Shown here: one piece after another, positions 6,062 through 30,642 of the stretch
Layout: every line of letters begins with the position of its first letter
How positions within the stretch are numbered: position 1 is the stretch's first letter
Source: SAR324 cluster bacterium
Lineage (GTDB): Bacteria; SAR324; NAC60-12
Direction of reading: 5' to 3'
DNA length: 56,074 nucleotides
NCBI GenBank assembly: GCA_015232315.1
Contig: JADFZZ010000033.1
Coordinates: 1-56,074, forward strand
The notes under the pieces: model-generated
What the model was told of the DNA's origin: nothing
The model's database searches: none
Seen by the model: the letters and a program-made list of their open reading frames with translations, nothing else
Position numbers and translations under genes: made by a program

Positions 6062-9000
6062 ATGCGACTCATCAGACAATATTCAGCATTTATCCGCTAT
6101 TCCCTGTTGGGATTGCTTGGCATAGCCATAGCACTTCTCCTCTTACTTCATGGATGCGATGATATCCCGATAGAAGGCGGCAACCGTATCACCGCAGGGC
6201 GTATCACTGCCGGGCGCATCACTGCCGGGCGCATCACCGCAGGGCGCATCACCGCAGGGCGCATCACTGCCGGAGTCGCTCAGCCCAATACCCCGATGTT
6301 TGCCATCGATGCACAGGGGAACATCTGCAACATCGGTATTTCTGACGAGGAAGGCACCTTTAATTTTGGTTACGATTATGATGACCGGCCTCTGGAAGAA
6401 CAACTCGCCGAGCCACGCAAAGACACCGCTTTTCGTTGTGAAACAGATAAAACCGGCAAGGTGTTTGTGCACAATCCAACGGTCCCCCTGCTGGTATATG
6501 GGGTATTGCCCTCTGCCAGTGATAAAAAAATCACAATACAGGAACTAGCCACTCAGCGCGGTGGTTGCACCATGGGTCGTGCCAACACCACCGCTCAGGG
6601 GCAATACCGGATCGTCAGTTCCATCGTGGTTACGGGAGAACCCACTGAAGGCAGTATCCCTGAACCGGTAGCAGCCTATGAAGATCCACCACCACCAGTG
6701 GAACAGGTGCTGAATGTGAATCCGGTCACACAGGCTTTGAGTACCCAGTTGCTGGGCAACAATGTGATCAGCAGTTTGCGTAGCGCATATTTCACCAACC
6801 CGTCCTGCTTCCGTGAAATTGGCAAGAATCCCGATGCGTTGGAAGTGAGACGTCGAATTTCTTCAGTTCTTAAAGGTCTTTCCAAAAACAGTTACAACAC
6901 CAAAGCGGATGCCTTGACCGTTCAGGTATTTGGCTCTTCTGTCAGTTTCAGTCAGTTTTATAACGACAAAAATTTCCGTGCCCGGACCCCTCAGGAACCT
7001 AAAGGGGGCAACATGGCGGATATCCTGGTCGATACCATCATCCATCAGGACAAACTGAGAACGCCTGAAACGATCATCGCCAAAATCGGGGATCTTTCCG
7101 ATCCGTCATATCCCTCAAAACTGCTGGATTCTACCGCGTTTCAGGCACGGGTTGCCGGCGTGATGATCGGGCAGGGCCGCACTGCGGCAGAAGCTGGAAC
7201 CGTGGTGCAGGAAGGGATTAAAAGCACCGCGCGTTTTGCCAGACAAACAGGAAGAGCCTTTTCTGAAACAGACGCCCGTGTTGTGGCACTGCAAAACAAT
7301 CTTTCCACCTACAGTCAGTCCCTGGAAACCGTGGCGCAAAAAGTTCAGTCTACAGGCGGTGATGCCATAATCCTCGAGGCCGTCATCAATGGAGTTTCGG
7401 ACACTGCTTCCAAAGTGATAACCAAAACAAAAGCCACTGACAGCACCAAAGCTGGTACCGCGTTTAGCAACACGGTTATTTTGAGTCAAGATTCGATGCT
7501 CAATGCCAACACTTCCAGCAATACTGGAACCGCTAAATTTGCTTTGCCGCGCTTGCTCAATGGGTCCCAGAAAAACACCTTGATGGAAAGTCTGGCCCAG
7601 GAATTGGCTGCACTGGCGACATCCTCCACCGTGACCATGACCAGCGGCAAAGCCAATTTAGCCACACTCAAAAAACAAGGTGACAAACTCTCTGAGATCC
7701 TGGCGTCCACCATCAGCAGTAACCTGAGTTCCACAACCGGTATTTCCGATCAGCAAAAAGATATTATTGCCAAAGCTGCCGCGGCTGAAGTGACCAAATC
7801 GCTCAAGCCTTTCATGAATGATCTGTCAAAAGGCATCGTATCCACAGCGGCACTCAACACGGCCACCAACATGACCAATGCCCTGACAACAGGACTGACA
7901 AAAATTTATACGGGTGCAGACAGCCAGAATCTGTCAACAGCCACGTTGGGCAATTTGACTCAAACAGTGGCATCGACCGCTGGAACTCAACTGCGTAAAC
8001 AGGATTTGAGTGGGGCCTCAACTACCAAAATGGGCAATCTGGTATCAAATCTGACAACTCTTGCCGTTGTCAGCACAGCCAAAACTGTCAGCTCCAATAC
8101 AAATGATGACAATCAGGCCGCGATCGCCTCTGCCATTGCGGAGCAGATTCTGACTGAAACCGTCAAACTTGGAATCGACCTGACCGGGAATTCGCCCCCA
8201 GCCAAAGCCACGAACCTGGCCGGAAACCTGTCACAGTCTCTGGGGGCCGCTCTTTCGCAGACTCTGGACAATTCATCGGGGCGTAAAGGCCAGAATATGG
8301 AAGTAATGCTTAAAAGCGCGGCTTCCTCTGCTACCACATCCCTTAAATCACAGGTTGATCTGACCGGAACTGTCGATAGCACAGCGTTAGCCAGTATGAC
8401 GGCAAAAGCCTCCACCCAGGCACAGAATTCCGCAAAAGCGATGGAATCCACCTTTCAGAAACTGGAAACCGCCGGAGCTGATCTCGGGTTAATGATGGAT
8501 TCATTGCTGGAAAGTGATCTGGATGCCAGTGCGTTGGACAGCATTATGCAACAGGTATCCTCTGTAGTCGGAAAAAGCAGTGGAAACGCCAGTGCTTCTG
8601 TAGAATTGATTTCTGCGGCGGCCACCAGCGCCAACAAAATTCTTGAAGCCGGTGGTTCTCTGGATCAGGCCCTGCAAATTGCGGCGGTTTCAACGTCAGC
8701 CATCCAGCAGGTGGTTCAGGCGGGTGGCGCCAATCTGAATTTTGAGGATCTGTTCATGGCGACCAACACCATGGCGGAATCCACGGATACCTTATTGCAA
8801 AAGGGCGATGTGGCCAAAGCGATGAGTTCGATCAATGTCATTGCTTCAGTCGTTGTCGCCTCGGTCAATTCCAGTTCCAACAATGACGATGATGATCCTG
8901 ATTTTGACGCTTTTCTGGAGAACCTTGGAGCGTCCATGGACCGTGGAGAAACCATTGTAGCGGGAAGTCTGGTCAATGATGCCACCATTATTTCACAGGC

Positions 9001-12000
9001 CCAAACTGCCCAAACCACGTTGGAGCAGGCATCTCAGGTGATACTTGCTGGAACAGAGGCTCCTGTGTTACTGGAAGTGCAACCGGTTTCCACCCCCACT
9101 TCGAATCGAACTCCAGCCTATAAATTTTTTACTGATCAACCAGGCAAACTGACTTATGAGGGAGGATGCTCCAGTACCACCACGGAGGTGCCCACTGCGG
9201 GGGATATCAGCATTACCTTCAATCAACTGAATGACGGCACCTATTCCAACTGTAAAATTTATCTAACCAATGCTGAGGGCGCAAAGTCTCTGGCTTTGAC
9301 GGTTTCAACCTTTGTCATCAACACAGAGGCCCCAACACTGTCTATTGTAACCGGAGTGCCCGTAGTGACAGAAAACACCACACCCACAGTGGTGATCAAC
9401 TCCAGTATTGCCGGCACTATTTCTTATCCGGGTCAATGCTCCAGTGCCAAGACAACCGCAGTGAAAGGTGACAACAGCATCGCTTTGAACCAACTCGCCT
9501 TTGGAACCTATTCAGCCTGCCAGATCAAAATCACCGATTCCCTGGGCAACCATTCGACCCTGACGCTGTCAGAATTTACCATAGGCACCATTTACCCAGT
9601 GATTACCGAAGTTACACCCGTACCTTCTCCTACGAATGATACGACTCCCGGTTTCACCTTCAGTTCTGATTTTGAAGGAACATTGAATCTGGCAGGTTCC
9701 TGTTTTGATACAGCACCTGATACGTCACTAACGGAAGCTGAGGATGGCTCGCTATTATATACAATCACATTCAATGGTCTGGCCGATGGAATGTACAGTG
9801 ACTGTACTGTCAGTTTAACCGATGATGGCGATGATGAAAGCAACACACTGAACATCAATGAATTCACTATTGATTCTACGTTGGCAGGAATAATCGACGT
9901 GATTGCATCCACAGGGAATGGCACCTATACTTATGGCCAGACCATTGACATCCATGTGACATTCGATGACCTGGTGTATATTGATACTGATACAACACCT
10001 GGTATTGACCTTGATACAGGAACATCATCCGGAATAGCGAGCTATGTATCCGGCAGTGGCACCAACGAACTGGTATTCCGCTATACCATCCAGGCGGGTG
10101 ATGTCTCCGCGGATCTGGAGTATATGTCAGGTTCTGCCATCAATCCCGAAGGAATTTTAACAGATGAAACGGGAGCGAGCGTTGCTCAAAACCTGCCAAC
10201 GATTGGCAGTGGGAATTCGCTGTCGGATAATCAGGATCTGGTGATACAGGGTCTTATTGAAAGCACTTCTCCCACCGATAATCAAACGGACTTAAGCCTG
10301 AATTCATCGATTGTGGTTCATTTTTCAACCCCGATTGAGCCAACGTCGTTAACAACCAGCAGTTTCACTATCAATGACGGCACAGGAAATGTTTCGGGAA
10401 ATGTCACTTATAATAGTACCGATTTAACCGCTACCTTCACCCCTTTCGGCGCATTACAGGATAACACTATTTACACCGCGACACTGACGACTGAGGTTCA
10501 AAGTGCTGATGTTCCGGCAATCGCGTTGCCTGTGAACTACACCTTCAACTTCACAACCGTGGATCTCAGCAGCTCATTGGTCGCGTATTATCCATTTACG
10601 GGAAACGCCAATGACGGTGGGATCAATGGACATAATGCCACAGTGACCGGTGCGTCTTTGACCACTGATCGTTACGGAGATGCCGATAGTGCCTATTTGT
10701 TTGATGGTTCCACCAGCGAGATGACTACCGGAATTGACAGTGTGTCACCGCCATGGACTGCGGCTTTATGGGTCAAGAGGCTCGATACCACAGAAACTTC
10801 CGCGGCCCTTCTTTGTGAGTCCACAGGCACGCGCTGTCTCAAACTGGAACAATTGGAGGGCACCAACAAAGTAGGATTGAGTGGAATCTCGGATTATTTT
10901 TTTGACTATGAAGCGCCAACAGGAATTTGGACTCATCTGGTCTTTTCCGCGGCTTCCAATGCCGTTTCGCTGTATGTAAATGGAGTGTTTCAAGACTCCT
11001 TGAGCATTGATGATTACTCTTTGCCGATTTACTATATTGGTAAAAACAGTGAGGGCAATGAGCGCCTCAAAGGCAGTCTGGATGAAATTCTTGTGTATAG
11101 CCGTGAGTTAACGGTCCATGAAATTCAGGATCTCTATACGGAACTTGACCGGGGTTTAGTCGCCTGGTATCCCTTCGACAGCACCCATACTGGAAATGAT
11201 ATCAGTGGCAATGATCTCAATGGAACCGTCACCGATACCGTACTTGCCGCGGATCGTTTTTCAAATGCCGAGTCCGCGTATGCGTTTAATGGTATCAGCG
11301 CTGATGTTCAGATTCCCCATAATTCGCTGCTGAATCCTGGTTCATCTTACACCCTCTCAGCCTGGATCAACGTGCAGAATCCAGGGCAGGATGATGGACT
11401 GATCCAAAAAGGCACCGATGGCTATTCGCTTGGTTTAAGCCAAGGTGCGCCGATGATGGATCAGCGTGTAGCTACTAGCACTTTGTCCACAACTCAATGG
11501 TATCATCTGGCCGCTGTGAACAGTGCTGGAACCAGAACGCTGTATCTTGATGGCGTTGCACAGACTCTGGCTACTGGAAGTACTACGTTGGTTGACAATG
11601 CAAGCGCGCTGATTCTGGGTAAAGACAGTGACAGCTATTTTGACGGGATCATGGATGAAGTCCGCATCTATAACCGACCCTTGGCACCTTTTGAAGTGAC
11701 CGCGTTATTCAATACACAAGATACCAATTCCCCAAACTTCAGCACGGCAACAGTCTCCGCGGATAATAGTTATATTGAAATTGTCTTGTCTGAAGGGGTT
11801 TATGGAACTCCTTATGGTAGTGGCGCGGTCTCAATTGGTGATTGGGAACTGGTCTTTACATCCAACAATGGCGGTGCAACGGGGGCGATGATCACCAGTA
11901 TTACCGATGCCGAGGGTAATCCTTTGACCGGAGGAGAAACTGTCATTCGAATACACATCAGCTACACAGGAACCCCCTCTGGTGTAGAAACCATAAGCCT

Positions 12001-15000
12001 TCATGCGGTCGCTAACGCGGTGTTTGATCAAGGTGGAAATCCGCTCATGATCACCCAAACCACTGGAACCCAGGTGCTTAACGACCAGACATCGCCTGTT
12101 TTAGCACAAATTTCCGCAATTACATCACCAGCCAATGACGCGACGCCCAATTATACGTTCAGTTCCAGTGAAGAAGGCACCATCACCTATGGCGGCAGTT
12201 GCTCCAGCGGTACGACTTCCGCGACAACCGGCAATAACATGATCACGCTTTCAACGCTGACCGATGGCACTTATAGCAACTGTACCATCCAGGTCACTGA
12301 TGCCGCTGGTAATGCAAGCTCCTCATTAAGCCTGAGTGCCTTCACGATCGATTTGACTTCTCCCACCTTGGCTCAAGTGACCCCCATTCCGACACCTGCG
12401 GGAGACAACACCCCGTCCTATACGTTCAGTTCCAGCGAAGCCGGCACCATCACCTATGGCGGCAGTTGCTCCAGCGGCACTTCATCAGTGACGGCTGGCA
12501 ATAACACGATCACCTTTACAACGCTGGCCGATGGCACTTATAGCAACTGTACCCTTCGCGTAACTGACTCGGCTTCCAACCAGAGTACCGTTCTGACCGT
12601 GAGCACCTTTGAGATTGATACCGTCAGTCCTTCAATCAGTTCGGTGTCATCCTCTGCCGCAAATGGTTCCTACAAACTGGGAGATACCCTGATTCTCAGT
12701 GTCACCTTCAATGAAACGGTGACGGTGACGGGAGGCTATCCGTTACTGACTCTCGAAACCGGAAGCACAGATCGCAGTATCCTTTATAGCAGTGGGAGCG
12801 GAAGTAATACCTTGAACTTCACCTACATGGTTCAAGCTGGAGACAATTCCGTTGATCTGGATTATACAAACACCTCCGCGCTCACGCTCAATGGTTCCAC
12901 CATCCAGGATGCAGCCGGTCATAATGCCCTTCTGACACTCCCTACGCCTGGAGCGACTGGCTCATTAGCCTACAATAAATCGCTGGTGATTGATGGGATT
13001 CTGCCGATTGTCAGTTCAGTGTCCTCTTCCACCACAAATGGAACATATATTTTGGGCCAAAACATCAATCTGACTGTGACTTTTAGTGAAGTTGTGAACG
13101 TCACTGGCACACCCTATCTGACCTTGGAAACAGGAACTTCCGACCGCAACGCCAGTTATGCCAGCGGTAGCGGTACCTCCACGCTAGTCTTTAGTTACAC
13201 GGTACAAAGTGGGGACAATTCAGCGGATCTTGATTACACGTCAACTTCCGCTTTGGCGCTCAATAGCGGCACCATCAAGGACAGCAACGGCAATGACGCG
13301 ACCCTGACTTTGCCTGCTGTTGGCGGGGCTAGTTCGATTGCCGGACAAAAAGTTCTGGTTGTTGATGGGGTGATTCCCACGGTCAGTTCAGTTTCTTCAT
13401 CCAGTTCTGATGGAACTTATATTCTGGGCCAAAGCATTAACCTGACTGTGATTTTTAGTGAAGCAGTGACTGTGACTGGAACGCCCTACCTGATCATGGA
13501 AACAGGAACCACTGACCGCAACGCCAGTTATGCCAGCGGTAGCGGCAGCACCACCCTGGTTTTCACTTACACCGTTCAGAGTGGCGACAATTCAGCGGAT
13601 CTCGATTACACCTCAACTTCCGCATTGGCGCTCAATAGCGGCACCATCAAAGACAGCAACGGCAATGACGCGACCCTGACGTTGCCTGCTGTGGGTGGTA
13701 TCAATTCCATCGCTGGACAAAAAGCGATTTTGGTCGATGGAGTGATTCCCACCGTCAGTTCGGTTTCTTCGTCCACCACTGACGGAACTTATAAATTAGG
13801 GGATAGCATTACCATCAGTGTCACCTTCAATGATGTGGTTACCGTGGCAGGGGGGACTCCATTACTGACCCTCGAAACTGGAAGCACAGATCGTAGCATT
13901 CTTTACAGCAGTGGGAGCGGAAGTGATACCTTGAACTTCACCTACCTGGTACAATATGGAGACAATGCTGTTGATCTGGATTATACAAACACCTCCGCGC
14001 TCACACTCAATGGTGCAACCATCAAGGACAGTAGCGGCAATGATGCGACTCTGACGTTGCCTACCGTTGGCGGTGCTAGTTCGATTGCCGGACAAAAAGC
14101 CATTGTGATTGATGGCGTTATTCCAGAAATCAGTTCGGTGTCCTCTTCCACCGCAAATGGAACGTATATTTTGGGCCAAAACATTGATCTGACGGTGACC
14201 TTCAACGAGGCTGTGATCGTCACTGGTGCACCCTACCTGACCCTGGAAACAGGAACCACCGACCGTAATGCCAGTTATGCCAGTGGCAGTGGTAGCACCA
14301 CCCTGGTTTTCACTTACACCGTTCAAAGTGGGGATAATTCAGCGGATCTGGATTACACGTCAACTTCCGCTTTGGCACTCAATAGTGGCACCATTAAAGA
14401 CAGCAACGGCAATGACGCGACTCTGACGTTGCCTGCTGTGGGCGGTGCTAGTTCGATTGCCGGACAAAAAGCTCTGGTTGTTGATGGGGTTGCTCCTGTC
14501 CTGGCGGAAGTCACTTCGATTGGTTCAACCACCAGCACAACCCCTTCCTATACCTTCAGTTCAACAGAGGCGGGAACCATCACTTATGGTGGAAGCTGTA
14601 CAAGTGTGACAACCTCATCTGTTTCCGGAAACAACACGATATCGTTCACAGCTCTTACAGAAGGAACCTACAGCAATTGTACAATTCAGGTAACTGACGC
14701 AAATGGAGGAATAAGCAATTCACTGACTGTAAGCACTTTTACTGTGGATTATACAACGCCGACAGCGGGAAATACAGGCACACTTTCCACTTCAAACATC
14801 AGCGGAGGAAGTCTGACGTTGAGCTGGACAGCCGCGACGGACAACATCGCCACACCATCCACACTGACCTATTATGTGTATTATTCTCTGAGCAACAACA
14901 TTTCTACTGTTGTCACTGCGGAATCCAGCGGAACTCTTGCAACCAGTGGAACCAATATTACCAGCGCCAATATTTCAGGATTGTCGGTCAGCACCCTGTA

Positions 15001-15550
15001 TTATTTTAATGTAGTGGTAAAAGATCCCACGAACAATAAATCAAGCTATACTTCAACATCTGCGACAACGGGTAGTTTAACCACATTTTCAGGAATTCAA
15101 AGCAATGTAGCCATTTCCAGCCTCAGTGGCTGGACCCAATGTTATTCGGATACATACGCTAATGGAAGCACGGCTCTCAGTAGCATTCTCAGTGCTTGCA
15201 ACAAGAACAATCTACTGATTGCCTGTCGTGCCACCAGTTCTTCAACACTGATCATTGCGGCTCACGCTCCCCGGGCTGATGTCACCTATGTCACTACGGC
15301 GGATACAACAACGGTTCATACCGCAAATGGAGTGGATTGGTATTATAACACCAGTCAGGCTTGGGGCTTTGCTCACACGGGTGATGGGGTCAGTAAAAAT
15401 TCCTGTGATACAGCATCCGGAAGCTATCCGGGTGAAAGATTATGTTTTCATACCAGTAGCGGTAATATTTCAGGAGGCTATCGCTGCGGTTCAACCTTAG
15501 GTCTGAACGGAGACGTTAACTATGAACGGATGATTTATCATGCGGATTAA
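6062..15550 (+). CDS. giant multidomain repeat lipoprotein, adhesin-like
   Basis: A 3162-residue protein with a membrane segment ending in a lipobox-like LLHGC (Cys at about 31), so probably a lipoprotein. It begins with six GRITA-type pentapeptides (residues about 42-71). A long Ala/Ser/Thr-rich helical region runs to about 1000. Ig-like modules of about 90 residues (YTFSS, GTITYGGSC, GTYSNC) occur near 1000-1270, 2010-2186 and 2810-2900. A cadherin/SbsA-like Ig region lies at about 1275-1500 and two LamG/concanavalin-type domains (YYPFTGNAND, WYPFDSTHTGND) at about 1500-1880. Five near-identical modules of about 124 residues span 2192-2810. A fibronectin-III-like domain (about 2900-3010) and a Cys-containing C-terminal module follow. 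The layout suggests a surface adhesin or carbohydrate-binding protein. No Shine-Dalgarno is clear at the ATG. Confidence 0.75.
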   Translation: MRLIRQYSAFIRYSLLGLLGIAIALLLLLHGCDDIPIEGGNRITAGRITAGRITAGRITAGRITAGRITAGVAQPNTPMFAIDAQGNICNIGISDEEGTFNFGYDYDDRPLEEQLAEPRKDTAFRCETDKTGKVFVHNPTVPLLVYGVLPSASDKKITIQELATQRGGCTMGRANTTAQGQYRIVSSIVVTGEPTEGSIPEPVAAYEDPPPPVEQVLNVNPVTQALSTQLLGNNVISSLRSAYFTNPSCFREIGKNPDALEVRRRISSVLKGLSKNSYNTKADALTVQVFGSSVSFSQFYNDKNFRARTPQEPKGGNMADILVDTIIHQDKLRTPETIIAKIGDLSDPSYPSKLLDSTAFQARVAGVMIGQGRTAAEAGTVVQEGIKSTARFARQTGRAFSETDARVVALQNNLSTYSQSLETVAQKVQSTGGDAIILEAVINGVSDTASKVITKTKATDSTKAGTAFSNTVILSQDSMLNANTSSNTGTAKFALPRLLNGSQKNTLMESLAQELAALATSSTVTMTSGKANLATLKKQGDKLSEILASTISSNLSSTTGISDQQKDIIAKAAAAEVTKSLKPFMNDLSKGIVSTAALNTATNMTNALTTGLTKIYTGADSQNLSTATLGNLTQTVASTAGTQLRKQDLSGASTTKMGNLVSNLTTLAVVSTAKTVSSNTNDDNQAAIASAIAEQILTETVKLGIDLTGNSPPAKATNLAGNLSQSLGAALSQTLDNSSGRKGQNMEVMLKSAASSATTSLKSQVDLTGTVDSTALASMTAKASTQAQNSAKAMESTFQKLETAGADLGLMMDSLLESDLDASALDSIMQQVSSVVGKSSGNASASVELISAAATSANKILEAGGSLDQALQIAAVSTSAIQQVVQAGGANLNFEDLFMATNTMAESTDTLLQKGDVAKAMSSINVIASVVVASVNSSSNNDDDDPDFDAFLENLGASMDRGETIVAGSLVNDATIISQAQTAQTTLEQASQVILAGTEAPVLLEVQPVSTPTSNRTPAYKFFTDQPGKLTYEGGCSSTTTEVPTAGDISITFNQLNDGTYSNCKIYLTNAEGAKSLALTVSTFVINTEAPTLSIVTGVPVVTENTTPTVVINSSIAGTISYPGQCSSAKTTAVKGDNSIALNQLAFGTYSACQIKITDSLGNHSTLTLSEFTIGTIYPVITEVTPVPSPTNDTTPGFTFSSDFEGTLNLAGSCFDTAPDTSLTEAEDGSLLYTITFNGLADGMYSDCTVSLTDDGDDESNTLNINEFTIDSTLAGIIDVIASTGNGTYTYGQTIDIHVTFDDLVYIDTDTTPGIDLDTGTSSGIASYVSGSGTNELVFRYTIQAGDVSADLEYMSGSAINPEGILTDETGASVAQNLPTIGSGNSLSDNQDLVIQGLIESTSPTDNQTDLSLNSSIVVHFSTPIEPTSLTTSSFTINDGTGNVSGNVTYNSTDLTATFTPFGALQDNTIYTATLTTEVQSADVPAIALPVNYTFNFTTVDLSSSLVAYYPFTGNANDGGINGHNATVTGASLTTDRYGDADSAYLFDGSTSEMTTGIDSVSPPWTAALWVKRLDTTETSAALLCESTGTRCLKLEQLEGTNKVGLSGISDYFFDYEAPTGIWTHLVFSAASNAVSLYVNGVFQDSLSIDDYSLPIYYIGKNSEGNERLKGSLDEILVYSRELTVHEIQDLYTELDRGLVAWYPFDSTHTGNDISGNDLNGTVTDTVLAADRFSNAESAYAFNGISADVQIPHNSLLNPGSSYTLSAWINVQNPGQDDGLIQKGTDGYSLGLSQGAPMMDQRVATSTLSTTQWYHLAAVNSAGTRTLYLDGVAQTLATGSTTLVDNASALILGKDSDSYFDGIMDEVRIYNRPLAPFEVTALFNTQDTNSPNFSTATVSADNSYIEIVLSEGVYGTPYGSGAVSIGDWELVFTSNNGGATGAMITSITDAEGNPLTGGETVIRIHISYTGTPSGVETISLHAVANAVFDQGGNPLMITQTTGTQVLNDQTSPVLAQISAITSPANDATPNYTFSSSEEGTITYGGSCSSGTTSATTGNNMITLSTLTDGTYSNCTIQVTDAAGNASSSLSLSAFTIDLTSPTLAQVTPIPTPAGDNTPSYTFSSSEAGTITYGGSCSSGTSSVTAGNNTITFTTLADGTYSNCTLRVTDSASNQSTVLTVSTFEIDTVSPSISSVSSSAANGSYKLGDTLILSVTFNETVTVTGGYPLLTLETGSTDRSILYSSGSGSNTLNFTYMVQAGDNSVDLDYTNTSALTLNGSTIQDAAGHNALLTLPTPGATGSLAYNKSLVIDGILPIVSSVSSSTTNGTYILGQNINLTVTFSEVVNVTGTPYLTLETGTSDRNASYASGSGTSTLVFSYTVQSGDNSADLDYTSTSALALNSGTIKDSNGNDATLTLPAVGGASSIAGQKVLVVDGVIPTVSSVSSSSSDGTYILGQSINLTVIFSEAVTVTGTPYLIMETGTTDRNASYASGSGSTTLVFTYTVQSGDNSADLDYTSTSALALNSGTIKDSNGNDATLTLPAVGGINSIAGQKAILVDGVIPTVSSVSSSTTDGTYKLGDSITISVTFNDVVTVAGGTPLLTLETGSTDRSILYSSGSGSDTLNFTYLVQYGDNAVDLDYTNTSALTLNGATIKDSSGNDATLTLPTVGGASSIAGQKAIVIDGVIPEISSVSSSTANGTYILGQNIDLTVTFNEAVIVTGAPYLTLETGTTDRNASYASGSGSTTLVFTYTVQSGDNSADLDYTSTSALALNSGTIKDSNGNDATLTLPAVGGASSIAGQKALVVDGVAPVLAEVTSIGSTTSTTPSYTFSSTEAGTITYGGSCTSVTTSSVSGNNTISFTALTEGTYSNCTIQVTDANGGISNSLTVSTFTVDYTTPTAGNTGTLSTSNISGGSLTLSWTAATDNIATPSTLTYYVYYSLSNNISTVVTAESSGTLATSGTNITSANISGLSVSTLYYFNVVVKDPTNNKSSYTSTSATTGSLTTFSGIQSNVAISSLSGWTQCYSDTYANGSTALSSILSACNKNNLLIACRATSSSTLIIAAHAPRADVTYVTTADTTTVHTANGVDWYYNTSQAWGFAHTGDGVSKNSCDTASGSYPGERLCFHTSSGNISGGYRCGSTLGLNGDVNYERMIYHAD
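6185..6274 (+). repeat. six tandem 15-bp repeats
   Basis: Six units of the pattern CGCATCACTGCCGGG, with CGTATC and ACCGCAGGG variants, encode (G)RITAG six times just after the lipobox cysteine of the giant lipoprotein. The unit length is a multiple of three, so copy-number change would alter the length of this linker without shifting the frame. Confidence 0.9.
12635..14500 (+). repeat. five in-frame tandem repeats of about 372 bp
   Basis: Units begin near 12635, 13011, 13383, 13755 and 14130, each opening with a CAGTTC(G/A)GT block and encoding an Ig/cadherin-like module (SSVSSS, GTY.LG, LTLETG, SGSGS, YTVQSGDNS.DLDY). Long identical stretches between units 2, 3 and 5, and between 1 and 4, indicate recent duplication or gene conversion inside the giant lipoprotein gene. 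Confidence 0.9.
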
Positions 15551-16854: not shown

Positions 16855-17150
16855 GGGGCTATTCAGTTCTTCTGCTTTTGAGGGTCAACCGGATGATAGG
16901 CGGGGATTACAGGCCAATGTCGTCAACTTAAGGCGTTCTTCGCTGGGGAATCCCCATTTTCAAAGGGGGCATGGGGGATTTAACGCTCAGAATGACATCC
17001 CCCTAACCCCCTTGAACCAAGGGGGAATTGAAACACAGCACCGTTCAGAATGCTTAAGTTGATGACATTGGATTACAGGCCCCGCCAATTCCACAATCGT
17101 ATGTTTGATGGGCACGTAGTCCCGTCCTGCCTGATAACTGAACAGCCCTG
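16855..17150 (+). mobile_element. MITE-like element A, copy 1, interrupted by element B
   Basis: The two ends, GGGGCTATTCAGTT on the left and AACTGAACAGCCCTG on the right, form an imperfect terminal inverted repeat. The body (CAACC.GATG.TAGG...GGGGATTACA and CGTATGTTTGATGGGCA) matches the reverse complement of 30832-30969. Removing the 156-bp B insertion and one target copy restores a continuous match. It has no coding capacity and lies directly upstream of the zor operon promoter. Confidence 0.65.
16915..17070 (+). mobile_element. MITE-like element B, copy 1, with 10-bp target duplication
   Basis: A 156-bp non-coding element. Its left end CAATGTCGTCAACTTAAG mirrors its right end (reverse complement CAATGTCATCAACTTAAG). 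It is flanked by the direct repeat GATTACAGGC at 16905-16914 and 17071-17080, and the interrupted sequence is element A. The inside carries further palindromes (CCCCATTTTCAAAGGGGG, CCCCCTTGAACCAAGGGGG-like). A second copy in opposite orientation lies at 24517-24671. The mobilising transposase is not in the window. Confidence 0.85.
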
Positions 17151-17167: not shown

Positions 17168-17195
17168 TTGACATGTTGATAAGTAATGCTACTAT
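17168..17195 (+). promoter_or_regulatory. sigma-70-like promoter of the zor operon
   Basis: TTGACA at 17168-17173 and TACTAT at 17190-17195 are separated by 16 bases: a perfect -35 box and four of six at -10. Transcription would start near 17202, about 70 bases before the zorA start codon. The promoter is just outside the right end of element A. Confidence 0.55.
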
Positions 17196-17209
17196 GCGTC
17201 GTTTTTGTG

Positions 17210-17237
17210 CTCAGCATGGATCGCTGAGTAATTTTTT
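17210..17237 (+). terminator. terminator-like hairpin in the zor leader
   Basis: CTCAGC (17210-17215) pairs with GCTGAG (17223-17228) across a seven-base loop, followed by TAATTTTTT. It begins a few bases after the predicted start of transcription and ends about 37 bases before zorA. This could attenuate the operon, or simply be a weak terminator of read-through. The stem is only six base pairs. Confidence 0.4.
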
Positions 17238-17273
17238 CCGTGAGGAAGAGTAACCTGTGAATCTTGGAAAATC

Positions 17274-19532
17274 ATGAATACGAATTGGATTCAGAATTTA
17301 TTTTTGCCGATCATTGAGTTTATTGCCAGCAATCATGTCGTTGAAGCGCTGATTGGAATCGCAATCATCATTTTCGGAATGTTTTATGTCTATCCCTGGA
17401 TCAATCTCCGAAAGGAACTTCTTCGGAGAACCAGGGAACTCAAGGCCAAACAGGCAGAACTTAAAACAAACGCGACCTTTCTGACCAGGGACCAGATTTC
17501 GATTGAAGGCTGGCATAACACCTTACAGCATTTGTGGGTTGAATTTAAGGAAACCCTGCATGAACAGGAAGTTTCTCCGGGAGTTCTGAGAGTCAGGGCT
17601 ACCCTGCCAGCAGCCGCTTTTTTCTCACCCCAGTCTGTTGTCGAAACCTGGTTACACACGGATTTTTTCAAACACTTGCCGGGAATCCTCACAGGCCTTG
17701 GAATCATTGGAACTTTTTCCGGATTGATCATTGGTCTGACAGGATTTCATGTGGACAATCCCACCCAGACCACTCAGGAATTACAGGGACTCCTCGGTTG
17801 GGTCATGAAAGCCTTTACCGCTTCCTTTCTGGCCATTGCCTGTGCCATCATCCTGACATTCATTGAAAAGATTCTGCTAACCAGGGCCTATCGCTATCTG
17901 GAAAATTTTACCTGTGTGGTGGATGCACTGTTTGAATCCGGGGTAGGTGAGGAATATCTGGCTTCGCTGGTCAAGTCTTCCCGGGAAAGCACGGATCAGG
18001 CAAAGCATCTCAAACAAGGCATGGTGGACGACTTGCAACGAATTATGGATGGGGTCGTCGAGGCGCTTAGAAAAGACTCGGAAAAAAACACTTATGAACA
18101 AATCCGTGAACAACGGGTCCAATCAGAAAAAATGGCCACAGAACTGGCAAACGCGATCACAAAAAGTATTCAAAAAACGTTTGAGGGGCCGTTGAAACAG
18201 ATCACCAAATTTTCAGGCGATGTCGGCAACAGTCATGTCACAGGGTTGCAGGATCTGATCACCATGTTCATGGGGCAACTGCAAACAACAGTGGGCAGTC
18301 AAATGGGGCAACTGGATTCCATGATGGGGCAATCCGTCAACTCCATGCGGTCCATGCAGGATAATTTTGCGGGATTACTCAACAATCTGGGACATGCCGG
18401 GCAGGATGCGACCAACAGCATCAGTGTGCAATTGAAAGACGCATTGTCTCAGGTTCAGGCAACTCAAACTTCAATGATACAACACATGGAAGACATGCTG
18501 ACCAGGATGAGCATGAACTCTACAGCGTCCCAGTCTGAACTTCAATCCATGACCCAACGGATGGTTTCTCAACTGGATACACAGATTCAGGGAATGGTCC
18601 GGGATCTTCAGACTCAGCGGGAATCGCTTGATGAGCAAGGTCAGCGTCAAATCAGGGACGTGATGGAAACAGTGGCTGTTCAACAAAACAGGCTGATGAC
18701 AGACTTCAGTCAGCGTTTTGATGATCTGCTGCTCCGTGTGGATCAGCGTAATCAACAAACCTGGCAATCCATCACGGAAATTCAGCAGGAATCCGCGGCA
18801 ACTCAGGATCGAATGAAAGTACAGGGGATGGAATCCATTGAGTCACAAAATCAGGTCATGCAAACCTTTATCGGCCAATTCAAACAGGAAGTCGACCGTA
18901 TGGTGAGTTCCACCCATACCGCGGCTCAGGCGATGGGCCGCACCGCTGAACGACTGGATGTTTCAGTGAATCAAAGTGCTACCACCTTATCGGGTACTGT
19001 TCAGAAAATGAGTGGAATCTGGGGCGACTTCAATAAAGCCAGTGAAACGCTGCTACAAGCCACCAGGCAGGCTGATCAGGGGTATGCAAAGCTGTTGGAA
19101 TCCACTGGAAATATGGGGCAGACTTCCACCGTCTTACAGCAGGTCGCCATGGATCTGCACCACATGAATCAGGAATACCGTCAAACGCATGAGCAGATAT
19201 TGCAGATGACTCAAAGTTTACAGAGCATGCTCGAAACCTCTAAACGGGATGTGAGCGTCAACAGAAACCTGCTCGATCAACTGGAAAACTCGGTTGAAAA
19301 AATCCAGTCCTTTTCAGAAAACACTCAAGCATTAATCCACGCGACCAGGGAATATACCACACAACTGGACGATACCCTTTCCTCCGCGTTTGAAAATTTC
19401 GGTGAGGGGGTTGCCCGCAGTTTGCAAACATCCAATCAGGAATTTCAAAAAAGCCTCAAGGAAGCCGCGGATATTCTCAGTGAAGTGGCCGCGGAACTGC
19501 AATTGGCCCAAAATTCCAGCAGGAGAAGTTGA
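17274..19532 (+). CDS. zorA: ZorA-like MotA/TolQ/ExbB motor protein of a Zorya-type system
   Basis: A 752-residue inner-membrane protein. Hydrophobic segments lie at about 22-40, 136-156 and 178-200. GTFSGL (146-151) and the polar helix AFTASFLAIACAI are the TolQ/MotA-type channel helices, preceded by the FFSPQSVVETW...LPGILTGLGIIGTF arrangement (here split by a short linker) that I associate with ZorA. From about 230 to the end it is a very long Gln-rich coiled coil, the cytoplasmic tail typical of ZorA (family members are around 700 residues). In characterised Zorya, a ZorA5-ZorB2 ion-driven motor senses phage injection and the tail signals to ZorC/ZorD. The stop overlaps the zorB start (TGATG). 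The start has only a weak GGA upstream. Confidence 0.8.
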   Translation: MNTNWIQNLFLPIIEFIASNHVVEALIGIAIIIFGMFYVYPWINLRKELLRRTRELKAKQAELKTNATFLTRDQISIEGWHNTLQHLWVEFKETLHEQEVSPGVLRVRATLPAAAFFSPQSVVETWLHTDFFKHLPGILTGLGIIGTFSGLIIGLTGFHVDNPTQTTQELQGLLGWVMKAFTASFLAIACAIILTFIEKILLTRAYRYLENFTCVVDALFESGVGEEYLASLVKSSRESTDQAKHLKQGMVDDLQRIMDGVVEALRKDSEKNTYEQIREQRVQSEKMATELANAITKSIQKTFEGPLKQITKFSGDVGNSHVTGLQDLITMFMGQLQTTVGSQMGQLDSMMGQSVNSMRSMQDNFAGLLNNLGHAGQDATNSISVQLKDALSQVQATQTSMIQHMEDMLTRMSMNSTASQSELQSMTQRMVSQLDTQIQGMVRDLQTQRESLDEQGQRQIRDVMETVAVQQNRLMTDFSQRFDDLLLRVDQRNQQTWQSITEIQQESAATQDRMKVQGMESIESQNQVMQTFIGQFKQEVDRMVSSTHTAAQAMGRTAERLDVSVNQSATTLSGTVQKMSGIWGDFNKASETLLQATRQADQGYAKLLESTGNMGQTSTVLQQVAMDLHHMNQEYRQTHEQILQMTQSLQSMLETSKRDVSVNRNLLDQLENSVEKIQSFSENTQALIHATREYTTQLDDTLSSAFENFGEGVARSLQTSNQEFQKSLKEAADILSEVAAELQLAQNSSRRS

Positions 19533-20425
19533 TGTTTCGTTCTCCCTCAATTCCCGTGAAGTCTTCTGATGAAGGCGAAAAACCTTTCTGGATCTCCTAT
19601 GCGGATTTGATGACCGCGTTGATGGTTCTGTTTCTGGTGGTGATGTGTGTGACACTGCTCAATGTGACACGGCAAATCAACGAAAGTCTCGCTAATGAAG
19701 ACATTCGAAAACAGGAAATCATGACATTTTGTCAGGATCTTCAACAAATGCTTGGTGCCAATGCAAAACTGTCTTCGATCCAGGTAGATTGTGAGCGGAA
19801 AAAAATCAATTTTGGAACAGAGGCACTCTTTCCCTATGCGGATTATCATATTTCCAGTACCACTCAGGGAAAGCTCCGTTATTTTGCGTCCGAACTGCTC
19901 AAGGTTGCGGAAAGTCCAAATGGCAAACGCTGGTTAAAACGAATCATTGTGGAAGGATTCACCGATTCCAAGGGGTCGTATCTCTACAATCTTGATCTGA
20001 GTCTCAAACGTTCTCAATCGGTTCTTTGCTCACTGATTTCACCAGATCAATCATCCGTTCTGACTTTGTCGGAAAAACTGCAAATCCAGAAACTCTTTCT
20101 GGTTGGAGGCTTTTCCTCAAATTCCAGCAAATCTTCCGCGGATGAAAGTCGGCGTGTTGAATGGAAACTGGATTTTTATGGTTTGACGGAAGAGCCTGTC
20201 AATGCTCCGGAAACATATCAACTGACCATGCAGGGTTTGTATGCTTTGGATAAACAGAGTTCCATTCCTAAAGCATACGCTCTCAGAGGATTGGTTGGAA
20301 ACGAATATACAGGTTCAGAAGAGTTCCTCAAAGCGGTTGAAACTGTTTTAGGCCGGGACCTTGTTCTGAAAAACAGTGAAAATCTGCTGGATGTTGCCAG
20401 TAACTTTGGTCGATGCCAACTATAA
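19532..20425 (+). CDS. zorB: ZorB-like MotB/OmpA stator protein
   Basis: A 297-residue partner of ZorA. A single membrane helix (about 24-44) follows FWISYADLMT, whose Asp25 matches the ion-binding aspartate of MotB/ZorB. A periplasmic OmpA-like peptidoglycan-binding domain covers roughly 95-235 (EGFTDSKGSYLYNLDLSLKRS and RRVEWKL; the usual GHTD reads GFTD). A C-terminal extension of about 60 residues is unassigned. The ATG at 19532 overlaps the zorA TGA, with AGGAG 6 bases upstream, so translation is coupled. An in-frame TTG one codon earlier is less likely. Confidence 0.8.
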   Translation: MFRSPSIPVKSSDEGEKPFWISYADLMTALMVLFLVVMCVTLLNVTRQINESLANEDIRKQEIMTFCQDLQQMLGANAKLSSIQVDCERKKINFGTEALFPYADYHISSTTQGKLRYFASELLKVAESPNGKRWLKRIIVEGFTDSKGSYLYNLDLSLKRSQSVLCSLISPDQSSVLTLSEKLQIQKLFLVGGFSSNSSKSSADESRRVEWKLDFYGLTEEPVNAPETYQLTMQGLYALDKQSSIPKAYALRGLVGNEYTGSEEFLKAVETVLGRDLVLKNSENLLDVASNFGRCQL

Positions 20426-21903
20426 CAGCCATGAGTTCTATGTCTCAAACATCACTGGCCCGGCGGCTCGAATTGATTCAGCAAAACTGGGATTTGAAAT
20501 ACAATCCATTTCCCGGAGAATCGTTGAATCCGTTGCTGGAAAATCTGATTGAAACCTTTCATCCTTCCGGAGAGCTGCACCGGGCGTCGCACCAGATCAT
20601 TGCGTCACTGAGAAAATTGAAAGATTACGGTGGATATTCGCTGCAAAAACGGGATTTGTTTTTCATTAGTTTGGGCCTCAATCACGAAGATCCAGGCTTG
20701 TTTCCTGATGCGTTAAAACTGATAAACAGCCCTCTGTTTTACCAATACTGGGGACGTTTCAAAGAGTCCTGGCAAGAATTTGAGTTGAATTCCCTCCATT
20801 GGCGCAAACTACTCATTTTTGGTTATTTCCGGTTCATTCCATCCAAAGGTACAGGAATCGGACAGCAAAACTGGGAAAATATCCGCCAGTTTCTGGCTGA
20901 GACCTTTGATGAAATGAAACGTAGATCCAAACCTCGAGTCTGGATTGCTATGCTGGAACAGCATCTCAATTTATTGCAATCCAATCCCTGTCAGCCCTAT
21001 GTCATGGAATTTTTGAAGGGGGATCACGCTCGTCTGCAAGCCCTCAAGGAACAAATGAAAATGCCCGAAGATGGCTGGTTCTGGTCTGCTATTGTGTTTT
21101 CAGCGGTTCATGAATCCATTCACTATGACGACAATCGCTTCAAGGAAATTCTGGCATTGCCAGAGCGTGAACCACCAGAAGAACGTCAACAGGAACCATG
21201 GCCGTTGATCTGTGCAGAACTGGAACGTCATTCCTTGTATCTGCATGAAGGTCTGGGTTTGTTAATGAACCGCTATCAACAATGTTCAGAACATAGACTC
21301 CATCCGGGATTGTTGACCGTGATTCTGCATTACTGGAAAAATCCTCAACGGGATTCCCGTTCTCCCGAATGGAACAGGGTGCTTCCTGAAACCAGATTCA
21401 TGGTGACAGGCTGGTTGGTGAATGAGGATTTACAGGATTTTTTTGAAATGATTGAACAAGATCCTGTCAACTGCAAACGGATGATTGATTTCTGGAATCG
21501 CTATAGCCAGCAGGTTTCATATTCCAGGATCATGCTCAAACCCATGGTTCGTCAACAGGAGGAATATGTGCCACTGATCACACGCAAGAAAGACCGGTTG
21601 GGTACCCTGGATAGCAATGGAAAATCCAACACACTGCTGATGAAGCTTGGTTCCTCAGTGTTTGTGGAATTTTCCGGAGCAGGCAATGGATCCTATTTTT
21701 ATTCCATTTCCAGGCTCCCCTTCGAGTTTGATCAGCAGTCCATCAGTTCTGATCTCAAAAAAGAAGATCCCGGTAAATTAAAAATGCTCAATACCAACAG
21801 AGAATCTGTAAAACCCCGATTGATTCAAACCCCTCAAATCTGGGAAAATGAATTATCCCGCCAGTTAAATGCTCTGGGTATGATCCCGGATGCTTCCCGG
21901 TAA
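20413..21903 (+). CDS. zorC: ZorC-like protein with EH_Signature domain
   Basis: A 496-residue cytosolic protein. The region at about 388-441 contains RLGTLDSNGKSNTLLMKLG followed by FVEFSGAGNGSYFYS and LPFEFD. I recognise this as the EH_Signature pattern (SN.F.M.LG...VEFS..GN..Y.Y..) that defines ZorC of type I Zorya. The N-terminal 380 residues are mostly helical and not otherwise recognised. In known type I systems ZorC binds DNA and acts with the ZorD helicase/nuclease. Here the following gene is a tRNA nucleotidyltransferase and no ZorD is present. The start is uncertain: ATG at 20413 overlaps zorB by 13 bases, and ATGs at 20431 and 20440 are alternatives; none has a strong ribosome site. 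Confidence 0.7.
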   Translation: MPTITAMSSMSQTSLARRLELIQQNWDLKYNPFPGESLNPLLENLIETFHPSGELHRASHQIIASLRKLKDYGGYSLQKRDLFFISLGLNHEDPGLFPDALKLINSPLFYQYWGRFKESWQEFELNSLHWRKLLIFGYFRFIPSKGTGIGQQNWENIRQFLAETFDEMKRRSKPRVWIAMLEQHLNLLQSNPCQPYVMEFLKGDHARLQALKEQMKMPEDGWFWSAIVFSAVHESIHYDDNRFKEILALPEREPPEERQQEPWPLICAELERHSLYLHEGLGLLMNRYQQCSEHRLHPGLLTVILHYWKNPQRDSRSPEWNRVLPETRFMVTGWLVNEDLQDFFEMIEQDPVNCKRMIDFWNRYSQQVSYSRIMLKPMVRQQEEYVPLITRKKDRLGTLDSNGKSNTLLMKLGSSVFVEFSGAGNGSYFYSISRLPFEFDQQSISSDLKKEDPGKLKMLNTNRESVKPRLIQTPQIWENELSRQLNALGMIPDASR

Positions 21904-21932
21904 AACAGCAAAACATAGGGGAAGCGTTCAGC

Positions 21933-22059
21933 CGTCAGCTATCAGTTTTCAGAAATTATCAAAGACTTGAAGCCTAACGATATTTTCTGCTATTGAATCA
22001 TAATGCTTCTGAGGCGCATAAACACTGAAAGCTGAATACTGAAAGCTGAAAGCTTACAA
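21933..22059. repeat. imperfect inverted repeat of AGCTGAAAGCTGAA type
   Basis: The left side carries CAGCTATCAGTTTTCAG and the right side CACTGAAAGCTGAATACTGAAAGCTGAAAGC, giving partly complementary arms about 70 bases apart after the zor operon. It is a simple interspersed intergenic repeat of a kind common in bacterial genomes and is not itself coding. Confidence 0.45.
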
Positions 22060-24516: not shown

Positions 24517-24671
24517 CAATGTCATCAACTTAAGCATTCTGAATGGTGCTGTGTTTCAGTTCCCCCTTGGTTCAAGGGGGTTGGGGGATGTAATTCTGAG
24601 CGTTAAATCCCCCATGCCCCCTTTGAAAAGGGGGATTCCTCGGCGAAGAACGCCTTAAGTTGACGACATTG
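24517..24671 (-). mobile_element. MITE-like element B, copy 2, with 10-bp target duplication
   Basis: A 155-bp copy of the element at 16915-17070, in the opposite orientation. Ends are CAATGTCATCAACTTAAG and the complement of CAATGTCGTCAACTTAAG. The direct repeat GGAGAGGGCG flanks it exactly (24507-24516 and 24672-24681). Together with the other copy this fixes the element boundaries and a 10-bp target-site duplication. Confidence 0.88.
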
Positions 24672-24710
24672 GGAGAGGGCGACCAGCGGGTTGCCCCCTA
24701 CACATAACAA

Positions 24711-29346: not shown

Positions 29347-30642
29347 ATGATTAAAGACGCTGAAACAAACAAGCTGGACTTCCAGCAGTCCATGAAAGAA
29401 ATGCTGAGACAGGAAGAAGATGCCGGCGAATTGAAAATATCCAAAGTCGCGGTGATGGTTTGTTTGACAGGCTGGTTGTTCGGTCTGACGGTCCTGCTTG
29501 GATTCAATGTCAGGCTGGGTCAGATTTTATGCGCCATTGCCATGGTGTACGCTGTCTATTACGCCTTGATCATCAAGATCATCCAACGTGGAAAATATCA
29601 TCCCTGGATCAAGTATGTTTCCAGCACTCTGGAAGTCAGTGCGCCAACCCTGATCGCTCTGGTTGATACGCTGCACCAGTCACCGGCTTATGCACTCACC
29701 AGTTCTCCGACCTATCTTTATTTTATCGCAGTGAGCGCGACAACCCTCCGCTTTCGCATCAAACTCAGTGTGTATGCCGGAATTTTGGCAGGATTGGAAT
29801 TGATGTGTCTGTATGTTTTTCTGGCGCCGGGGATTCCAGAGGAACTGGTGGAACAACTGCCCTCTCTGAATGTCGTTATCTATTCGCAACGAGCCATTTA
29901 TCTGGTACTTGCAGGGATTATGGCAGCCGCGATCTCGGGTACAGCCAGACGACTTTCCGCGTCATTTGCCGAAGAAATGCAACAACGTGAATACCTTCGG
30001 CGCATGTTTGGTAAATATGTTTCGCCAGTGGTCGCAGAACATTTATTGAGCCAGACCAGTGTTCTGGAAGGTGAAATGAGAGAGGTCACGATTCTTTGTA
30101 CAGACATCAGAGGGTTCACCAGTTTTTCATCGCATAAACAACCTGCCGAAATTGTGCGATTTTTGAATGCGTTGTTTGACCGTCAGCAGGAAATTGTGAG
30201 CAAATATCATGGGCATGTGAATAAATTTCTGGGAGATGGCATGCTGGCGGTGTTTGGTGCACCGTTTCCGGATGAAAACCATGCGTTGCACGCGGCGCAA
30301 GCCGCATTGGAAATCATGGCTCTGCAACATGAAGTCTGGCCCGAATCTCCGGAAAAACTAAGATTGGGTGCCGCCTTGAATACAGGACCCGTGGTCATCG
30401 GCAATGTGGGGGCCTCTGAAAAACTTGAGTACACTGTGATTGGCGACACGGTCAACACGGCATTTCGGATCGAGGGATTGAATGGGCGACTGGGAACGTC
30501 AGTGTTGATCAGTGAAAGCACCAGACTGAGTCTTGCGGATCAGGCTGTTCTCCAGACATTTCCACCGCAAATGGTTCGTGGCAAGGAAGAACCTGTAGCA
30601 ATCTTTGAGATGACCAACCTCCTCAGTCCTGAGCAAAAATAG
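29347..30642 (+). CDS. membrane-bound class III adenylate/guanylate cyclase
   Basis: A 431-residue protein. The N-terminal half (about 38-205) has some five to six hydrophobic segments. The class III catalytic domain spans about 235-425: metal-binding TDIRGFTSFS, then KFLGDGMLAVFGAP with the second aspartate, then EYTVIGDTVNTAFRIEGLN, which carries the transition-state Asn/Arg pattern. It should make cAMP (less likely cGMP) at the inner face of the cytoplasmic membrane. It is the last gene of a three-gene operon that has a CRP-type palindrome upstream, so cAMP may feed back on its own production. Confidence 0.9.
   Translation: MIKDAETNKLDFQQSMKEMLRQEEDAGELKISKVAVMVCLTGWLFGLTVLLGFNVRLGQILCAIAMVYAVYYALIIKIIQRGKYHPWIKYVSSTLEVSAPTLIALVDTLHQSPAYALTSSPTYLYFIAVSATTLRFRIKLSVYAGILAGLELMCLYVFLAPGIPEELVEQLPSLNVVIYSQRAIYLVLAGIMAAAISGTARRLSASFAEEMQQREYLRRMFGKYVSPVVAEHLLSQTSVLEGEMREVTILCTDIRGFTSFSSHKQPAEIVRFLNALFDRQQEIVSKYHGHVNKFLGDGMLAVFGAPFPDENHALHAAQAALEIMALQHEVWPESPEKLRLGAALNTGPVVIGNVGASEKLEYTVIGDTVNTAFRIEGLNGRLGTSVLISESTRLSLADQAVLQTFPPQMVRGKEEPVAIFEMTNLLSPEQK

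What the first reader, a model, noticed from the sequence alone, without database searches (positions are those of the whole stretch)
17168..21903. Zorya-type zorA-zorB-zorC operon with no zorD or other known effector beside it
Seen: a MotA/TolQ-like membrane protein with a 500-residue coiled-coil tail, a MotB/OmpA-like protein with the ion-binding Asp, and an EH_Signature protein, coupled by overlapping starts and stops. Known: type I Zorya is zorABCD, type II zorABE, type III carries zorF/zorG; ZorD is a SNF2-type helicase with a nuclease domain. Here zorC is followed by a tRNA nucleotidyltransferase 250 bases on. Inference: this is either a reduced or variant Zorya (ABC only), a system whose effector is encoded elsewhere, or a relic kept for another use. 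The OmpA-like motif has Phe for the usual His (EGFTD).
Basis: partly seen in the sequence, partly recalled or inferred. Interest (0 to 1): 0.8.

Follow-up and report, generated by a model that had tools for sequence, protein, structure and literature searches.

The report
Zorya motor operon lacking its nuclease
A bacterium carries three of the four genes of a known anti-virus system (Zorya type I) but, as far as its genome shows, not the DNA-cutting partner, and one otherwise universal residue of the third gene is changed; similar three-gene versions occur in other bacteria and some are clearly preserved by selection, so the motor part may have a use of its own.

Summary
Window 17274-21903 encodes ZorA, ZorB and ZorC of the type I Zorya family in overlapping frames. 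No zorD follows: a 138-bp dispersed repeat begins 19 bp after the zorC stop, then comes cca. No ZorD was found in this 95%-complete genome; its SNF2 helicases match only ZorD's C-terminal half. The motor is intact (ZorA T147/S184, ZorB D26; 0 of 43 conserved ZorB sites broken). ZorC is altered: the EH-signature His, present in all 104 other alignable ZorC compared, is Asn (N460), and the C-terminal domain is missing. Phe in EGFTD is ordinary here. zorABC without zorD recurs: 11 of 80 fetched ZorB loci, and most ZorC-bearing Gallionellaceae. AU tests reject a single origin; the window is an independent case. In Gallionella and Oxalobacter these genes are under purifying selection (dN/dS 0.03-0.18), and in Gallionellaceae they usually sit beside an FHA-domain cyclase and often a Ser/Thr kinase, which no zorD-linked locus showed. 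Most likely the window locus is a zorD-less type I derivative, inactive in ZorD-type defence; a ZorD-independent function remains open.

The parts
16914..17071 (.). dispersed repeat upstream of zorA (one of two repeat families that bracket the three genes)
   Evidence: at least 40 other copies in the genome, 81-98% identical; inverted arms 16896-16932 / 17053-17089
17274..19532 (+). zorA: MotA/TolQ-like membrane protein with long cytoplasmic tail, 752 aa
   Evidence: PADLOC ZorA1 6e-141; E. coli ZorA 8qyd 5e-80 over residues 24-737; T147 and S184 kept
19532..20425 (+). zorB: MotB/OmpA-like peptidoglycan-binding stator protein (297 aa from ATG; 298 from TTG 19529)
   Evidence: PADLOC ZorB1 3e-85; E. 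coli ZorB 8qyd 1e-54; ion-binding Asp26 kept; 0 of 43 conserved sites broken
20222..20401 (+). insertion of about 60 codons in zorB before the conserved C-terminal FGxC tail (limits approximate)
   Evidence: alignment A1; longest ZorB of the set; low-confidence helices in the model
20413..21903 (+). zorC: EH_Signature protein, 496 aa, ends at the end of the EH domain, no C-terminal D-R-x-GG-LW domain
   Evidence: PADLOC ZorC1 4e-71; Pfam EH_Signature 2.5e-24; E. coli ZorC 8r68 8e-29; fold match to 8r68 E 1.8e-13; alignments
21667..21669 (+). codon of ZorC Glu419, the Glu of the EH signature (aligns with E. coli E400)
21790..21792 (+). AAT codon of ZorC Asn460 where every other alignable ZorC has His (aligns with E. 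coli H443)
21922..22059 (.). dispersed repeat of about 138 bp starting 19 bp after the zorC stop, where zorD would lie
   Evidence: at least 39 other copies in the genome (only 40 places scored), 83-98% identical

Best explanation
A type I Zorya locus that has secondarily lost its effector arm. ZorA and ZorB should still assemble the ion-driven, peptidoglycan-anchored motor with its cytoplasmic tail. ZorC is present but lacks the signature His and the C-terminal domain, and the ZorD helicase-nuclease is absent from the locus and was not found in the genome. In the published model the activated motor recruits ZorC/ZorD to the DNA; without ZorD nothing is delivered, so the locus is most likely inactive in ZorD-type defence: a reduced remnant, probably recent, whose frames are still open. 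Shown: gene content, residue changes, no ZorD in the assembly, origin separate from other zorD-less lineages. Inferred: motor assembly, loss of defence, recency.
For: Profile, structure and phylogeny put the genes in type I. No zorD beside it or elsewhere in the assembly. Signature His replaced only here, 104 of 104 other alignable ZorC keep it; ZorC breaks 5 of 21 conserved sites while ZorB breaks 0 of 43. A high-copy repeat abuts the 3' end of zorC, a possible deletion site. All nearest relatives on the tree (L047, L058) have zorD. In a tested type I system deletion of each component, zorD included, abolishes protection (PMC11890865).
Against: All three frames are open over 1,545 codons, and the ZorC branch is not disproportionately long (C/B ratio 1.60 against 1.78 tree-wide), so there was no long period of decay. 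zorD-less zorABC is kept by selection elsewhere. Loss of zorD is inferred from the tree, not seen; no remnant of zorD remains. The His change rests on one base.
Confidence: 0.5

Rival explanations
1. A functional ZorD-independent variant: the motor and ZorC act as a complete unit with another output, as the zorABC sets of Gallionellaceae and Oxalobacter seem to do.
For: Open frames, intact motor residues, even branch lengths. zorABC without zorD recurs, with dN/dS 0.03-0.18 in close pairs, no ZorD in their genomes, and a kept cyclase/kinase neighbourhood.
Against: Those lineages keep the EH His and are not its nearest relatives. The window has no cyclase/kinase of that kind beside it and no other gene that looks like a replacement effector. 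It is the only genome of 52 in its phylum with this class.
Confidence: 0.35
2. The effector is encoded elsewhere in the genome and acts in trans, for example one of the SNF2-type helicases.
For: Several SNF2 proteins score against ZorD models (E down to 1e-136).
Against: Matches cover only the C-terminal helicase half; two carry DUF3670, one fits DpdE models better. The best by the ZorD alignment has a 66% identical counterpart in G004, which has no type I ZorB or ZorC. In the 72 zorD-linked loci sampled zorD lies beside zorC.
Confidence: 0.07
3. Assembly or completeness artefact: the contig was misjoined at the high-copy repeat after zorC and zorD lies in the unassembled few percent.
For: The repeat is short and has many near-identical copies; the genome is in 88 contigs, 95% complete.
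Against: In canonical loci zorD overlaps or closely follows zorC; here zorC ends and 19 bp intervene before the repeat. No ZorD N-terminal half on any contig. The His change would remain.
Confidence: 0.06

Closest known systems
Zorya type I (zorABCD; E. coli, Klebsiella, Pseudomonas and others)
   Same: ZorA, ZorB and ZorC homologous over their length and in the same order, with overlapping frames; motor residues kept
   Different: No zorD at the locus or in the assembly; EH His replaced by Asn; no ZorC C-terminal domain; ZorB insertion; about 30% (ZorA), 50% (ZorB) and 20-30% (ZorC) identity to relatives
zorABC without zorD in Gallionellaceae, Oxalobacter and Formivibrio (found here; no description found in the papers searched)
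   Same: Same three genes, no zorD at the locus and none found in the genomes searched
   Different: EH His kept; separate origin (p-AU 2e-6 and 7e-7); in Gallionellaceae usually next to an FHA-cyclase and often a Ser/Thr kinase, absent in the window
Zorya types II (zorABE) and III (zorABFG)
   Same: Shared ZorAB motor
   Different: They carry ZorE or ZorF/ZorG instead of ZorC; none of these is beside the window locus. ZorA and ZorB score far higher with type I models

Membership tests
Zorya type I | ZorA of type I with T147/S184 motor residues | tested here: met
   PADLOC ZorA1 6e-141; residues kept. NCBIfam ZorA1 equivalog cut-off not reached (354 of 750 bits), subfamily antiphage_ZorA_3 reached
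Zorya type I | ZorB of type I with ion-binding Asp and OmpA-like domain | tested here: met
   PADLOC ZorB1 3e-85, D26 kept; NCBIfam equivalog cut-off not reached (252 of 400 bits)
Zorya type I | ZorC with EH_Signature domain | tested here: met
   Pfam 86.8 bits over cut-off 27.5, PADLOC ZorC1 4e-71, fold match to 8r68
Zorya type I | Glu and His of the EH signature | tested here: not met
   Glu419 kept, His replaced by Asn460
Zorya type I | ZorD (SNF2 helicase-nuclease) next to zorC | tested here: not met
   repeat and cca follow zorC; no match on C33
Zorya type I | ZorD anywhere in the genome | tested here: not met
   only C-terminal SNF2 matches; genome 95% complete
Zorya type I | Protection against phage | not testable with these tools
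   needs a plaque assay
Zorya types II and III | ZorE, or ZorF and ZorG, beside zorAB | tested here: not met
   Neighbouring ORFs of the window have no such match in PADLOC; the whole genome was not searched for ZorE, ZorF or ZorG
Gallionellaceae-type zorABC with FHA-cyclase and Ser/Thr kinase | FHA-cyclase and kinase beside zorABC; common origin | tested here: not met
   No such neighbour in the window; common origin rejected, p-AU 2e-6

The most novel reading that the evidence does not exclude
ZorABC is a module able to work without ZorD. It arose several times from type I Zorya by loss of zorD and was given another output, in Gallionellaceae linked to an FHA-domain cyclase and a Ser/Thr kinase. 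The window locus would be a further, independent example, the only one among the 52 genomes of its phylum, with a ZorC that does without its signature His.
Probability: 0.3. Interest if true: 0.75.

Novelty: new variant of a known kind. Interest (0 to 1): 0.5.

Why it matters
Type I Zorya is understood as a motor that recruits a nuclease, and ZorD is treated as indispensable. Natural zorABC sets without zorD, kept by strong purifying selection in two bacterial lineages and arisen more than once, make it testable whether the motor and the EH protein have an output of their own. The window adds an independent case in which even the EH His is gone, a natural test of what that residue does.

Tried and rejected
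ZorD in trans: the SNF2 hits of G000 lack the ZorD N-terminal half. Phe in EGFTD as a peculiarity: rejected. Loss of the ZorC C-terminal domain as the mark of zorD loss: rejected, because Acinetobacter/Psychrobacter zorABCD have ZorC of about 475 aa without it and Gallionella zorD-less ZorC is about 522 aa with a degenerate version. A remnant of zorD or of the ZorC C-terminal domain in the window: only chance-level tblastn matches. Same origin as the other zorD-less lineages: rejected. Conserved neighbourhood in relatives to define an insertion site: no synteny around cca at family level. Window ZorC in viral contigs and phages: no match. A careful IQ-TREE run timed out, so FastTree and a quick tree were used. 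Other defence genes around the locus, among ten neighbouring ORFs: only a cyclase matching Pycsar models 7.4 kb away.

Full report
What is there. The window is one whole contig (G000:C33). Three open frames with overlapping ends lie at 17274-19532, 19532-20425 and 20413-21903. PADLOC assigns them to ZorA1, ZorB1 and ZorC1 at 6e-141, 3e-85 and 4e-71; Pfam finds MotB_plug, OmpA and EH_Signature, and only a weak MotA_ExbB. The closest solved proteins are E. coli type I ZorA/ZorB and ZorC, and an AlphaFold model of the window ZorC (mean pLDDT 84) finds ZorC 8r68 as its only significant PDB neighbour. cca on the same contig is up to 61% identical to that of relatives, and the flanking repeats are those of this genome, so the contig is not foreign.

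What is missing. zorC is followed by 19 bp, a dispersed repeat at 21922-22059 (at least 39 other copies), about 100 bp, and cca. A second repeat family lies upstream of zorA. Such repeats are frequent in this genome, so their presence alone proves no deletion. ZorD models find in the genome only SNF2 proteins, matched over the C-terminal half; zorD genes of this class score over their full length. Two of the SNF2 proteins carry DUF3670, and the best match has a 66% identical counterpart in G004, which lacks type I ZorC and ZorB. ZorE, ZorF and ZorG were not searched genome-wide; none lies beside the locus.

State of the three proteins. ZorA T147 and S184 and ZorB D26 are kept. Against clustered sets of relatives ZorB breaks 0 of 43 conserved sites, ZorA 3 of 35 (mild changes), ZorC 5 of 21: L157I, L285M, R357M, G376K, H460N. 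The last is the His of the EH signature; by alignment it is His443 of E. coli ZorC, one of the two ZorC residues that I recall (from memory, not checked here) being mutated to inactivity in the first Zorya study. 71 of 71 alignable zorD-linked ZorC and all 33 other ZorC without a zorD in view (one of them, L040, cut by a contig end) have His there. AAT differs from CAT by one base, so a sequencing error is possible though unlikely. ZorC ends where the EH domain ends, as some ZorC of zorABCD loci also do. On a fixed tree the window's ZorC branch is not disproportionately long (C/B ratio 1.60 against 1.78). ZorB carries an insertion of about 60 aa before its conserved FGxC tail. Phe in EGFTD is ordinary.

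Relatives. A scan of 84,980 species genomes with ZorB found 335 relatives; the best 80 were fetched. Most are zorABCD; 11 have zorABC (one, L066, cut before zorA) without zorD after it: Formivibrio citricus, seven Gallionella/Sideroxydans-type loci, a gammaproteobacterial MAG and two Oxalobacter-type loci; some of these contigs end within 1-2 kb of zorC. In the nine such genomes searched no ZorD N-terminal half was found, and two had no match at all. In Gallionellaceae 30 of 158 genomes have a ZorC match: 26 have ZorC with ZorA and/or ZorB and no zorD, 2 are zorABCD, 2 are partial. At 20 of the 26, and at the gammaproteobacterial locus, an FHA-domain guanylate/adenylate cyclase is adjacent, in 16 of the 21 together with a Ser/Thr kinase; arrangements vary, and none of the zorD-linked loci shows this. 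Shared descent within one family accounts for part of this association. dN/dS between close zorD-less pairs is 0.03-0.18, similar to zorABCD pairs. Holding all zorD-less rows together, or the window with either other zorD-less group, is rejected (p-AU 8e-57, 2e-6, 7e-7), though the window branch is long and its exact place is unsure. Among 52 genomes of the phylum only G000 has a ZorB of this class; G048 holds a distant zorABCD and G010 a locus that looks like type II by its HNH-like third gene.

Reading. The locus is a type I Zorya derivative without ZorD, by an event separate from the other lineages. In a tested type I system deletion of each component, zorD included, abolishes protection (PMC11890865). 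With ZorD gone and the EH His replaced, the likeliest state is loss of ZorD-type defence with the motor still intact. Open frames and the even branch lengths say that this is either recent or that the genes still do something. Kept zorD-less zorABC elsewhere makes the second option real. No text describing zorABC without zorD was found in the open-access papers searched; the 2025 Nature structural paper on Zorya was not held, so novelty is judged against a partial library.

Noticed in passing
L149-L166, L169, L080, L088, L084 (Gallionellaceae and one gammaproteobacterial MAG): zorABC without zorD next to an FHA-domain guanylate/adenylate cyclase, often also a Ser/Thr kinase and a PAS histidine kinase; not seen at zorD-linked loci. 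Looks like a domesticated Zorya motor in a signalling neighbourhood.
   Followed up: partly
L060, L068, L087, L100 (Methylococcaceae): zorABCD loci with 0.7-3 kb of extra sequence, probably an additional gene, between zorB and zorC.
   Followed up: no
L077 (Limnobacter sp. 130), 8985-10762: zorA with a short tail (339 aa) and zorB without zorC or zorD, followed by genes of other kinds.
   Followed up: no
L202 3880-10610 (G048, same class as the window genome): A distant zorABCD beside a type I restriction-modification gene, ZorC only 397 aa and ZorD ending in a restriction-endonuclease-like stretch.
   Followed up: partly
window 29347-30642: Class III nucleotide cyclase matching Pycsar PycC models (1.4e-24), preceded by two overlapping small genes without Pfam match; may be housekeeping.
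   Followed up: partly
window 16914-17071, 24517-24672 and 21922-22059: Two families of short dispersed repeats, each with about 40 or more copies in the genome; many more candidates were not scored.
   Followed up: partly
window 6062-15550: A 3162-residue repetitive, probably surface-exposed protein with a lipoprotein-like start and an ITAGR repeat near its N-terminus.
   Followed up: no
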